From positions 599,069 to 663,068 of the forward strand of contig NC_018336.1 in assembly GCF_000234665.1 (NCBI RefSeq): a stretch of DNA of 64,000 nt, in the 5' to 3' direction. The translations under genes and the position numbers were made by a program. The notes beneath the pieces are model-generated. The model saw only the letters and a list, made by a program, of their open reading frames with translations. It made no database searches and was not told the DNA's origin. This DNA is from Leishmania mexicana MHOM/GT/2001/U1103. Lineage: Eukaryota > Euglenozoa > Kinetoplastea > Trypanosomatida > Trypanosomatidae. Shown in pieces: positions 38,615 through 60,562 of the stretch (positions within the stretch are counted from its first letter, which is position 1; every line of letters starts with the position of its first letter).

Positions 38615-39132
38615 CGCCCTGTGCGGGGGAGAAGCCAGGCAGAGCCCCTAACCCTGCCAATGCCGCGCCGCATCTGGTGGTGGCAGGGTCAAGCGCCTGC
38701 GACGTGGGGGCGGGGTCCGAGCGATGCATCGCTGCTGATGCCGGCGGCCAGGTCGTGGGTGGCGCTGCGTCGGAGCGGGCTGCGACTGTGCACCGGGTTG
38801 CGCCGTGCATGCTATATGGGCGGGGTGTCAGCGCGACTCGACTGCGGCCCGCCGGGCCCTCGCTGGCTCCTGGTGTGTGGCGCCTGGGCCGCCCCGAGGG
38901 GTGCGCCGGGTGGCGGCCGGCATGATATGAGCGGCTGCGGGGCTGCCCGCGTAGAGGAGGCTGGTGGAGGTTGGGGCAGGGCCCGTGCTGAGATGGCTGC
39001 GTCGGCGCATGGCTGTGATGCGTGTGCCCAGCGCTGCTTCGCACCACGCGATGGGGCCTGTGACGGCCCAGGGCTAGCGTGCCCATTCCGCCATACAGCA
39101 TGGGCGGAGCGGAGATGTCGGAACGAAAGCAT
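38615..39132 (+). mobile_element. Young SIDER2-like retroposon copy, 5'-truncated
   Basis: Nearly identical to the copies at 44450, 55052 and 60042, starting at CCCTGTGCGGGGGAGAAGCC and so lacking about 60 bases of the 5' end seen in the copies at 44450 and 60042. A 5' truncation is typical of target-primed LINE-like insertion. The 3' end keeps the CATTCCGCC hairpin region with the loop in the same orientation as the 44450 copy, and similarity ends after GAACGAAAGCAT. Open frames inside, on both strands, recur in the copies only because the copies are alike and GC-rich. Confidence 0.8.
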
Positions 39133-41482
39133 GCCTTTTTTGTGTACTGAGAAATACTGGTCGGGTGCGAAGGTGACTGGTGAGGGCTGAAGCGGGAGGT
39201 AGGTCCTGGTCTTTCGGTTTCACTTGTTGGCGAGGGACGGGCGAGGAGGTGCGAGTGCTGGATGCCGGCGGTGATTATAGTTCGGAAAGGATGGAGGAAT
39301 TGCATGCGTTCTCAGTGTTGGAAGTGCCTGGCGATGGTTGTAGGGACGTGTCATACGTTGAAGGCTTTACGTTTTTGGTGGTTACGGGTGTTCATTGTTA
39401 GGCATCCTCACTATGAAGGAGGTTTTTGACAGGTGATGTTCTGTGTTTCTGTCACTCTGGCTGATCTACTTTGTTGAGGTTTACTTAACGGAGTACACGG
39501 GTTTCAAGCGCTGATTTTCGCTCCGGAAGCACCGGGTATCTCGGTATCAGGGAACCTCACCAGGAAGCCTGTCTATCATACTTTTTTGTCGTTTCTGAGT
39601 AGGATTCATGAACAGCCAGATCCACAGTGACTGGGTTGTACTTTTCCTTGTGCGTGATGAAACAATTGGCGCTTTTCTTCCCACTGGAAAGGGGTAATCC
39701 TTGCACCACACTTCCTATTTGTGCCGGGCTCGACTTTTTAGAGTTCGACAAGCAGCAACGATTTGAACAACGCCTGGAAGCGAAAATAGGTGCGTTGAGA
39801 CAGTGCTGGGTAGTTTCAACCACCGCCCAGACGCGCAGTGCGAATTCGTAAGGATCCGATTTCTCGCAACTCGGCAACACTACAAGACTCTGGACAGCGT
39901 GCTGAACGTGCGGGGTCTTCGTGTACTGTAGACACTGAAATGCCACCGTGGTAAATCTGAAAAGTGAGTGGACATCGTTGATAGGCGGTGCCGGCGGAGG
40001 CGCCGCGATTCTGTCGCCTGGAATAGCTGCAGTCGTGCACACTTTTCTTTCGGTTGTGGAGTGAGGTGATGGTATACTGGTGGGAGGCACCGCGTATCTT
40101 CCGCCTCAGAGCCTCTATGACAGCTTCCTCGGCGACACGGGAATCAATACTAGGTGCTATGGGCCACTAAGCACATCAAGGTAGGTGCGTCCGCTACTTT
40201 CGAAGTCCCGGAAGACCGCTGGACCGTTTATAGCGTCTCATGGTTTGCAGACATTCGAGATCCAAGATGTTCCTGGACTTACTGCAGTTGCACTGGAGCG
40301 CAGCGTCATCTTCATTCTTGACAGGATCTGGCCACTTCCTCTTTTTTCGATGTGCACGGCTCAGGGTGCGATGTTTCCGTCAAGGCCAGAATAAAGCACC
40401 TCAGGGGTCATTCAGGTTTGGATCTGGGTATGGTGTCGTGAAATGAGAAGTGATTTCACGGTGTGAAATCAAGCCTGCTCCTGATTCAGGACACTTCGGG
40501 TAATGGGGACTGTTTTCCGAGTCTGCGTGGGTTGAGGACCATGGCCCTTCACTTGAAGGGGGCAGAGAAGCGAGCGTTTCTTATGCCTCGCTACTTTGGC
40601 AAATGCGACGAAGTCTTGCGGGCTCTTCAGCCTTTCCGAGTTGTCTTGGACACCAGATTTGGAAGCGCGACTTCACCTGCTCCCCTGGACTCTTTTCTGT
40701 TGTTTTTATCCCCACGTACAAATTGAAAAATGGGGAGCACGTGCTGGACGGGGTCAAGGTTTTCGGGATGGAGTTTTCATGGGATGCATTTGAGAGCTTG
40801 AGCATATACTAGGATTTGGCAGGGGTTCGGATAATAACGCAGCCAGAGAAATAATGGCCTCCTTTTTCGCAGCCAGGTCGGGATTTGGAACTCCGAAGAA
40901 CTGAATGAGGGCCTTAGGAGTAGTTGTAAGATGGTTTTCACTGACTAGAAAGGGTTCCAGAGTGACGAGCTTGTAATCACCCGGCGTGTGCTGGATGTCA
41001 GCATTTTTTTCTTCATTCCAGCAGCAAGACTCACACTTTTTGCTGTAAAATGCACTTCAATGATTTTCTTTAGTAGGAATACTTGAACACACGGGTGGTA
41101 TCGGTTTTTAATTCACACGTACTGCTATTTTCCCCTCTATTTTTAGTGAGCTAGTGTAACATTCGTGTTGACATGGGGTACTGTTTCTCTGGAGGAGGTA
41201 TCTCCTTTATTGGACTTAAAACAAGAAAGAAAAAGAGAGCATCTTTTTCCTTTGCATGCTGCGTCCTACGTGGACAGTCTCACGGTGACAGGGAACCCCG
41301 TAGGGATTCGCCACCTTGGACTGACGACATCGCCTCCATGCTGGTCACTTCTGTTGCGAATTGCAGACGAAATGAGTTGTTGTGAAAACAAAGTCTTCAA
41401 AACTGGCGCTCTGTTTCTCTTTCCGATCCGATTGGAGGTCATCTTTTTTCCTAACAGTCATCGGCCAAGTACCTCAGGAACA
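39133..41482. other. Gene-poor, lower-GC region with possible coding relics
   Basis: No intact gene recognised. 39180-39401 translates to a leucine/valine-patterned piece (MEELHAFSVLEVPGDG, then RDVSYVEGFTFLVVTG) that resembles leucine-rich repeats. 40220-40400 and 40500-40800 contain further protein-like pieces (for example GLQTFEIQDVPGLTAVALE and YKLKNGEHVLDGVKVFGMEF) in different frames with stops between. These may be remains of one decayed gene, or chance. The last 350 bases are the leader region of the next gene. Confidence 0.4.
41443..41457 (+). promoter_or_regulatory. Pyrimidine tract and AG: likely spliced-leader acceptor of DNAAF5
   Basis: A T/C tract at 41443-41452 and AG at 41456-41457 lie 25 bases before ATG 41483. 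Another tract/AG (41127-41146) lies further upstream; using it would leave upstream ATGs in the leader, so the nearer site better supports the chosen start. Confidence 0.5.
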
Positions 41483-59951: not shown

Positions 59952-60041
59952 ATAGCAGTTTTGAAGACACAAGGGTGATTGCTTTCGGTGCCTTTGTGCT
60001 GAAACTTCTTCTGCCGCCTTTTACTTGATACTTCCACGCCT

Positions 60042-60562
60042 GGATGAAAGGGGTGCACCTCAGTGCGCGGTATCCATGACCCTGTGCCCGCCCTGTGCGG
60101 GGGAGAAGCCAGGCAGAGCCCCTATCCCCTGCCAATGCCGCGCCGCATCTGGTGGTGGCAGGGTCAAGCGCCTGCGACGTGGGGGCGGGGTCCGAGCGAT
60201 GCATCGCTGCTGATGCCGGCGGCCAGGTCGTGGGTGGCGCTGCGTCGGAGCGGCCTGCGACTGTGCACCGGGTTGCGCCGTGCATGCTATATGGGCGGGG
60301 TGTCAGCGCGACTCGACTGCAGCCCGCCCGGCCCTCGCTGGCTCCTGGTGTGTGGCGCCTGGGCCGCCCCGAGGGGTGCGCCGGGTGGCGGCCGGCATGA
60401 TATGAGCGGCTGCGGGGCTGCCCGCGTAGAGGAGGCTGGTGGAGGTTGAGGCAGGGCCCGTGCTGAGATGGCTGCGTCGGCGCATGGCTGTGATGCGTGT
60501 GCCCAGCGCTGCTTCGCACCACGCGATGGGGCCTGTGACGGCCCGGGGCACGGTGGAAAAAA
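60042..60562 (+). mobile_element. Young SIDER2-like retroposon copy, terminal hairpin deleted
   Basis: Starts GGATGAAAGGGGTGCACCTC like the copy at 44450 and differs from it by about one base in the body. The 3' end goes straight from GACGGCCCGGGG to CACGGTGGAAAAAA, lacking the hairpin region present at 55573-55612; the tail after it matches that copy (CACGTTGGAAAAA). It lies 90 bases downstream of the POLD1 stop, in sense orientation. Confidence 0.85.

What the first reader, a model, noticed from the sequence alone, without database searches (positions are those of the whole stretch)
38615..60562. Four nearly identical SIDER2-like copies within 22 kb
Copies at 38615, 44450, 55052 and 60042 share about 480 bp with only scattered differences; those at 44450 and 60042 differ by about one base by eye. 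SIDER2 elements are described as old and strongly diverged, and the copy at 9963 fits that. Such likeness means recent retroposition in this species or ongoing gene conversion between the copies. One copy is 5'-truncated, which favours retroposition.
Basis: partly seen in the sequence, partly recalled or inferred. Interest (0 to 1): 0.75.

Follow-up and report, generated by a model that had tools for sequence, protein, structure and literature searches.

The report
Neighbouring dead retroposons overwrite each other
Old, dead retroposon copies scattered along a Leishmania-like chromosome have nearly identical middles but mismatched ends, which suggests that neighbouring copies keep copying sequence onto one another and did not jump in recently.

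Summary
The four copies are real. The own-genome search adds four more: eight on C32:637-710 kb. They do not look like recent retropositions. The seed's other relatives are only 71-74% identical (31 of 40 scored rows). Likeness stops inside the element: a core of about 460 bp differs by 1-8 bases among seven copies, while the ends are diverged versions, two 5' and two 3' types occurring in all four combinations. The "5'-truncated" copy keeps an eroded 5' end. Flanks are unrelated; no clear target duplications were seen. Best reading: ectopic gene conversion between old insertions.

Six further seeds agree: near-identical relatives lie on the same contig within 62 kb, or none were found. Over 56 sites, no pair over 108 kb apart or on different contigs reached 80%, except with a 1-kb contig duplicating one site. 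In 13 clusters cores are 97-100% identical, yet 3' ends fall below 80% in 42 of 55 scorable pairs.

The proximity rule is published (2008, 2009, 2024); the 2024 paper suggests copy-and-paste insertion. My searches found no paper proposing conversion.

The parts
38592..39140 (+). Homogenised core from about 38615; eroded private 5' end 38592-38614; 3' tail shared with copy 2 up to 39140
   Evidence: profile match 38592-39126; BLAST 38615-39140 vs 44497-45023 at 98.5%; in-register 5' remnant
44446..45023 (+). SIDER2-like copy 2. 5' type alpha (shared with copy 4), 3' tail shared with copy 1
55055..55626 (+). SIDER2-like copy 3. Diverged private 5' part and hairpin 3' tail, homogenised central and 3' core; a second version of this site is contig C287
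60037..60562 (+). SIDER2-like copy 4. 5' type alpha, private short 3' end running into an A-run
   Evidence: the profile match is wider, 60020-60587
9945..10546 (+). SIDER2-like orphan copy, 71% identical to the cluster, not homogenised although about 29 kb from copy 1

Best explanation
These are old SIDER2-type retroposon remnants, each at its own site between unrelated genes, whose middles are repeatedly overwritten by non-allelic (ectopic) gene conversion from neighbouring copies on the same chromosome. Shown here: the near-identity is local, stops inside the element, and mixes different end types; flanks are not shared. Inferred: a break or stalled fork inside one copy is repaired by homologous recombination using a neighbour tens of kilobases away as template, without lasting crossover, so the core is copied but the outer ends and flanks stay private. 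Also inferred: copies that remain similar keep converting, while copies that have drifted to about 70% identity no longer recombine. That would explain why identities are either about 90-100% or below about 82%, and why the 9963 copy is untouched only 29 kb away.
For: (1) Locality: 7 copies other than the seed at 92% or more, all on C32 within 50 kb of the seed; C287 at 86%; the other 31 of 40 scored rows at 71-74%. (2) Same in other seeds: 4 of 6 have near-identical relatives, all on the same contig within 62 kb; 2 of 6 have none above 82%. (3) 56 sites, 1,540 pairs: within 75 kb 54 of 70 pairs are at 90% or more; at 75-150 kb 2 of 12 (the farther is 107.6 kb); beyond 150 kb 0 of 37 reach 80%; on different contigs 8 of 1,421 reach 80%, all involving C287. 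(4) Junctions inside the element: within-cluster core identity median 0.994, minimum 0.972 (62 pairs, 13 clusters), but 3' end below 0.80 in 42 of 55 scorable pairs and 5' end below 0.80 in 25 of 62. (5) Reassorted ends: L003, L004, L005, L006 carry two 5' types and two 3' types in all four combinations. (6) Even inside the core, 5 of 10 pairs of informative sites show four gametes. (7) PHI-type test: 0 of 2,000 permutations at each of three window sizes. (8) Flanks unrelated. (9) Diverged 5' ends of 8 of 9 cluster copies, and 3' tails of 5 of 9, are recognised by profiles built without any copy of this cluster. (10) Two versions of one site (L008, C287) carry variants found in other copies of the cluster. 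(11) From papers: single-strand annealing between direct repeats up to 77 kb apart in L. donovani, falling with distance (PMC6706467, passages); repeat-mediated amplification with a RAD51 role (PMC4028189, passages).
Against: No other Leishmania genome could be searched, so orthologous sites were not compared here. 3' tails of 4 of 9 copies (L001, L002, L006, L007) were not recognised as SIDER2 by the leave-cluster-out profile, so part of the 3' difference could be flank. The L004/L006 3' pairing is only 80% over 46 columns, no better than L004/L008 at 81%. In 2 of 13 clusters (C33, C26) neither end falls below 80% in any pair. The run test gave low counts for several outgroup pairs too (1 to 141 of 1,000, runs of 5-9 sites against 37-138 within the cluster). 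Permutation tests assume even rates along the element. Own-flank word sharing was slightly above mismatched flanks (5.86 against 5.64, 15 of 300 permutations). SIDER1 is reported not to follow the proximity rule (PMC2689281, Discussion), so the process is not general to all such repeats.
Confidence: 0.88

Rival explanations
1. Recent retroposition: an active element copied itself into several nearby sites in this species.
For: Near-identical cores, unrelated flanks, A-runs near some 3' ends (25 of 56 sites).
Against: Target-primed insertion starts at the 3' end (established knowledge, recalled), so recent copies should share 3' ends; here 3' ends differ in 42 of 55 scorable within-cluster pairs. 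Near-identical relatives are confined to one neighbourhood per seed. No clear target duplications. The apparent truncation is an eroded end. SIDER2 is described as long extinct (PMC2323293, passages).
Confidence: 0.03
2. Ancient local copy-and-paste insertion without later conversion, as suggested for L. infantum clusters in the 2024 paper (PMC11520807).
For: Proximity of similar copies; 13 of 13 clusters monophyletic with support 1.0.
Against: Ancient copies should have drifted evenly; cores differ by 0-3% while ends of the same elements differ by tens of percent. End types are reassorted. Local hopping does not predict sharp drops inside elements.
Confidence: 0.05
3. Reciprocal crossing-over, inversion or single-strand annealing between copies shuffled the ends, without gene conversion.
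For: Some copies are inverted (L005 on C32); such events are reported between Leishmania repeats.
Against: Reciprocal exchange keeps each end with its own flank; here the same 5' end occurs in two flanks (L003/L004) and the same 3' end in two flanks (L003/L005, L002/L007), which needs copying.
Confidence: 0.04
4. Segmental duplication of a gene block carrying the element.
For: L003 and L004 share about 30 nt of 5' flank; two C8 copies share at least 48 nt.
Against: No flank-to-flank match among the eight loci, except two stretches that are the same DNA; the neighbouring genes in the window are unrelated; no other repeat in the window reaches E 1e-8.
Confidence: 0.01
5. Assembly artefact: reads of one copy were used to build several.
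For: 545 contigs; a 1-kb contig duplicates one site; a 100-base gap lies at 36284-36383.
Against: Copies keep private differences and unique flanks; artefacts from 70%-identical repeats are unlikely, and mixing should not respect chromosome neighbourhoods. The same proximity pattern is reported in L. infantum, L. major and L. braziliensis assemblies (PMC2424063; PMC2689281).
Confidence: 0.03

Closest known systems
SIDER2 proximity subfamilies (Requena 2008 PMC2424063; Smith 2009 PMC2689281; Reis Ferreira 2024 PMC11520807)
   Same: About 550-bp GC-rich interspersed elements whose neighbours on a chromosome are the most alike, in both orientations, between unrelated genes.
   Different: Those papers describe the proximity pattern; in the passages and sections I read, none attributes it to gene conversion. 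Here within-element junctions and reassorted ends are shown.
Repeat Alignment Groups of Leishmania (Ubeda 2014 PMC4028189)
   Same: Repeats, many of them SIDER2, usually confined to one chromosome, serving as recombination substrates.
   Different: That work concerns amplification through crossing-over; 'conversion' does not occur in its main text.
Concerted evolution of dispersed repeats by ectopic gene conversion (for example Alu elements, tandem tubulin genes in Leishmania)
   Same: Old insertions overwritten by relatives, giving mosaics and paralogue likeness.
   Different: Here strongly limited to neighbours within about 110 kb on the same contig; Alu comparison is recalled, and the tubulin case was seen only as a passage in PMC4413820.

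Membership tests
SIDER2 retroposon | Size around 550 bp and mean GC about 66.5% | tested here: met
   56 sites: mean 571 bp (472-627), mean GC 65.6% (58.0-72.5); family values from PMC2424063
SIDER2 retroposon | Two tandem 79-nt signatures at the 5' end | tested here: inconclusive
   No reference signature sequence was available. Internal similarity of the first 95 nt to the next 135 nt exceeded shuffles (10 or fewer of 200) in 2 of 15 sites. A CCCCTATCCCC-like block resembles the published description of cleavage site 1 in signature II; no count was made.
SIDER2 retroposon | A-rich 3' end | tested here: met
   25 of 56 sites have a run of five or more A within 40 nt of the 3' end; 28% is published for L. 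infantum
SIDER2 retroposon | Target site duplications | tested here: inconclusive
   Longest exact shared word 5-8 nt in the eight copies; own flanks 5.86 against mismatched 5.64, 15 of 300 permutations. Published for only 18.9% of L. major copies
SIDER2 retroposon | Intergenic or 3'UTR position, mostly in the sense of transcription | tested here: met
   5 of 5 window copies lie between + strand ORFs and are on the + strand; UTR limits were not tested
Ectopic gene conversion | Likeness in blocks that stop inside the repeat, flanks private | tested here: met
Ectopic gene conversion | Incompatible site patterns (four gametes) among non-allelic copies | tested here: met
   Core only: 5 of 10 site pairs; whole element: 816 of 1,711 site pairs
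Ectopic gene conversion | Paralogues within a species more alike than orthologues between species | not testable with these tools
   No other Leishmania genome held. Published table: 26 of 45 subfamily members have L. infantum-L. major identity below 85%, the threshold within subfamilies (numbers, counted); 19 of 45 do not, and truncated elements are included
Recent retroposition | Shared 3' end, variable 5' truncation, target duplication | tested here: not met
   3' ends differ in 42 of 55 scorable pairs; the truncated copy is not truncated; no clear duplications

The most novel reading that the evidence does not exclude
SIDER2 subfamilies as a whole are conversion neighbourhoods: dead retroposons kept alike by cis-acting, distance-limited gene conversion (up to about 110 kb), with a homology threshold that leaves copies either near-identical or free to diverge. 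This would keep local repeats usable for gene amplification and would make neighbouring genes share the same 3'UTR regulator.
Probability: 0.7. Interest if true: 0.65.

Novelty: new member of a known kind. Interest (0 to 1): 0.5.

Why it matters
Why SIDER2 copies resemble their chromosomal neighbours has been noted since 2008 without, in what I read, a tested mechanism; the 2024 paper suggests ancient copy-and-paste. If conversion is the cause, ages estimated from copy divergence are unreliable, the subfamilies record the physical range of repeat-to-repeat recombination in Leishmania, and the repeats that drive gene amplification are continually renewed. It also means a change in one 3'UTR element can spread to neighbouring genes. 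The claim is directly testable with existing genomes of related species and long reads.

Tried and rejected
Retroposition, segmental duplication, reciprocal exchange and assembly error were considered and set aside for the reasons under rivals. An Rfam search of window 36000-64000 gave one sub-threshold match outside the elements and nothing at them. The tandem-signature test was inconclusive (2 of 15). The TSD test used exact words only and would miss degenerate duplications. The longest-run test was not specific enough to lean on, since outgroup pairs also scored low. Purifying selection on the core was considered: between clusters the core averages only 71% identity, so it is not strongly conserved. 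C21's third copy (L064) did not group with the C21 pair. Within 75 kb, 10 of 70 pairs stay below 80%, so distance alone does not decide. The 56 sites are best hits to seeds, not a random sample, and each search scored only 40 of 501-739 candidates. Of 71 loci fetched, 15 were repeat fetches of the same sites and were dropped before counting.

Full report
What is there. The window contains five SIDER2-like elements, all on the + strand and between + strand ORFs: about 9945-10546, 38592-39126, 44446-45023, 55055-55626 and 60037-60562. Pairwise, 44447-44957 and 60039-60549 differ at 3 of 511 bases, the 38615 copy is 98.5% identical to both, and the 55052 copy is 92-94% identical to the others. 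The window belongs to a 32.03-Mb, 545-contig assembly, at C32:599069-663068. That it is Leishmania is inferred from the elements and genes; that it may be L. mexicana rests on recalled chromosome fusions and was not tested.

How far the family goes. Searching the own genome with the 60039 copy gave 40 scored rows of 627 candidates: eight C32 places (with the seed) between 637683 and 709627 at 92-100%, one unplaced 1,033-bp contig (C287) at 86%, and 31 rows at 71-74%. C287 aligns end to end with the 55052 site including its flanks (1,015 of 1,065 aligned columns; 34 gap columns, mostly one 31-base deletion), so it is a second version of that site, either the other allele or an assembly duplicate. 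Its core carries a G that the 55052 copy lacks and the 38615 copy has, and the two versions differ at another site that is also variable among the other copies.

The likeness stops inside the element. In the alignment of all copies the core (columns 163-644) differs by 1-8 of 461-462 positions among seven copies, and by 26-30 against the 55052 copy. Outside it, the ends fall into types. Over the 39 columns just 5' of the core, L003/L004 are 1.00 alike, L001/L002 0.97, L005/L006 0.90, but L003/L005 0.59. Over 46 columns at the 3' end, L003/L005 and L002/L007 are 1.00, L004/L006 0.80, but L003/L004 0.55 and L005/L006 0.45. So L003, L004, L005 and L006 show both 5' types with both 3' types. One weak spot: L004/L008 are as alike at the 3' end (0.81) as L004/L006. 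Against that, a 16-base 3' variant shared by L004 and L006 occurred at only those two places in a genome-wide pattern search allowing one mismatch.

The ends are element sequence, not just flank. Profiles built from 23 copies outside this cluster recognise the 5' ends of 8 of 9 copies and the 3' tails of 5 of 9; none of each copy's 200 shuffles scored as high. The exceptions are L007 at the 5' end and L001, L002, L006, L007 at the 3' end. For L007, the 38615 copy, the 25 nt upstream of the core match L005 and L006 in register at 18 of 25 positions (0 of 20,000 shuffles for each), but L002 and L004 at only 10 of 25 (about 5% of shuffles).

Recombination statistics. Across the element, 816 of 1,711 pairs of informative sites are incompatible, and a PHI-type score was below all 2,000 permutations at three window sizes. 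Inside the core alone there are five informative sites, and 5 of 10 pairs show four gametes. The longest-run test was significant for all 28 within-cluster pairs (at most 6 of 1,000), but several outgroup pairs were low as well (1-141 of 1,000), so I give it little weight. Uneven rates along the element could inflate these permutation tests; the core is not unusually conserved, since between clusters it averages 0.706 identity.

Flanks and insertion marks. Comparing the flanks of the eight loci outside the element gave no match except two stretches that are the same DNA. L003 and L004 share about 30 nt of 5' flank. No clear target duplications were found: the longest exact shared words are 5-8 nt in the eight copies; over 56 sites the mean is 5.86 against 5.64 for mismatched flanks (15 of 300 permutations).

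The rule elsewhere. Six further seeds were searched. C29, C33, C31 and C34 seeds have 2, 2, 4 and 2 relatives at 90-100%, all on the same contig within 62 kb; the C20 seed and the 9963 copy have none above 82%. Across the seven searches there are 274 rows other than the seeds: 18 are at 86% or more, 17 of them on the same contig, the other being C287. Among 56 distinct sites (71 loci less 15 repeat fetches), 1,540 pairs: within 75 kb 54 of 70 are at 0.90 or more, 6 at 0.80-0.90, 10 below; at 75-150 kb 2 of 12 (93.4 and 107.6 kb); beyond 150 kb 0 of 37 reach 0.80; on different contigs 8 of 1,421, all with C287. In 13 clusters (62 pairs) the core median is 0.994 and minimum 0.972, while the 3' end is below 0.80 in 42 of 55 scorable pairs and the 5' end in 25 of 62; C33 and C26 show neither. 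Windowed profiles show a plateau and a drop near the 3' end in most clusters. A FastTree tree has all 13 clusters monophyletic with support 1.0, though mosaics strain a tree model. The sites are best hits, not a random sample.

Mechanism. The simplest account is ectopic gene conversion between neighbouring old copies. Shown: local near-identity, internal junctions, reassorted ends, private flanks. Inferred: break repair from a neighbour, no lasting crossover, a homology threshold. Supporting literature: in L. donovani, Cas9 breaks are repaired by annealing of direct repeats (460 and 463 bp, 98% identical) and of repeats up to 77 kb apart, less often with distance (PMC6706467, passages); in Leishmania, repeat groups are usually confined to one chromosome and RAD51 promotes circular amplicons (PMC4028189, passages).

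What is known. Requena 2008 (PMC2424063; section 3 parts 1-4 of 6 read) grouped 54 L. infantum chromosome-32 elements into 13 proximity subfamilies (85% or more) with 9 orphans, found the same positions in L. major, and reported no clear target duplications. From its table, 26 of 45 subfamily members have L. infantum-L. major identity below 85%, median 83, which suggests but does not prove concerted evolution: 19 of 45 do not, exact within-subfamily values are not given, and truncated elements are included. Smith 2009 (PMC2689281, Discussion) agrees for L. major and says SIDER1 does not follow the rule. Reis Ferreira 2024 (PMC11520807, passages and Discussion part 1 of 2) finds 88.4% of L. infantum clusters on one chromosome and suggests ancient copy-and-paste insertion. 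The words conversion and homogen- do not occur in the main texts of the 2008, 2009 and 2024 papers. Searches for SIDER2 or SIDER with gene conversion, concerted evolution or homogenization listed no paper that makes the link, as far as the listings and the passages I opened show; one search listed 20 of 41 papers and one search listed 8 of 19. The library holds open-licence papers only.

Verdict. It is a new, well-resolved example of a published pattern with a mechanism I did not find proposed for it.

Noticed in passing
G000:C287:1-1033 (L009), matching window about 54835-55897: An unplaced contig is a second version of the 55052 site: flanks nearly identical, core with a 31-base deletion and different variants. 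Other allele or assembly duplicate.
   Followed up: partly
window about 38655-38665: The 38615 copy reads CTAACCCTG where the 44450 and 60042 copies read CTATCCCCTG, at a place that resembles the published SIDER2 mRNA cleavage site 1. It may have lost that site.
   Followed up: no
window 55570-55625, 44957-45023 and 39074-39140: The 55052 copy's 3' tail forms a long near-perfect hairpin; the 44450 and 38615 copies carry its loop in the opposite orientation.
   Followed up: no
window 44983-45750: The first ATG of the cyclophilin ORF lies inside the 3' tail of the 44450 copy; the Pfam domain starts at residue 85, so the true start may be downstream.
   Followed up: no
window 36284-36383: A 100-base run of N, an assembly gap, about 2.2 kb before the first copy.
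   Followed up: no
G000:C8 copies L060, L061, L063: L061 and L063 share at least 48 nt of 5' flank beyond the point where L060 departs, so conversion tracts or duplications can reach past the element.
   Followed up: no
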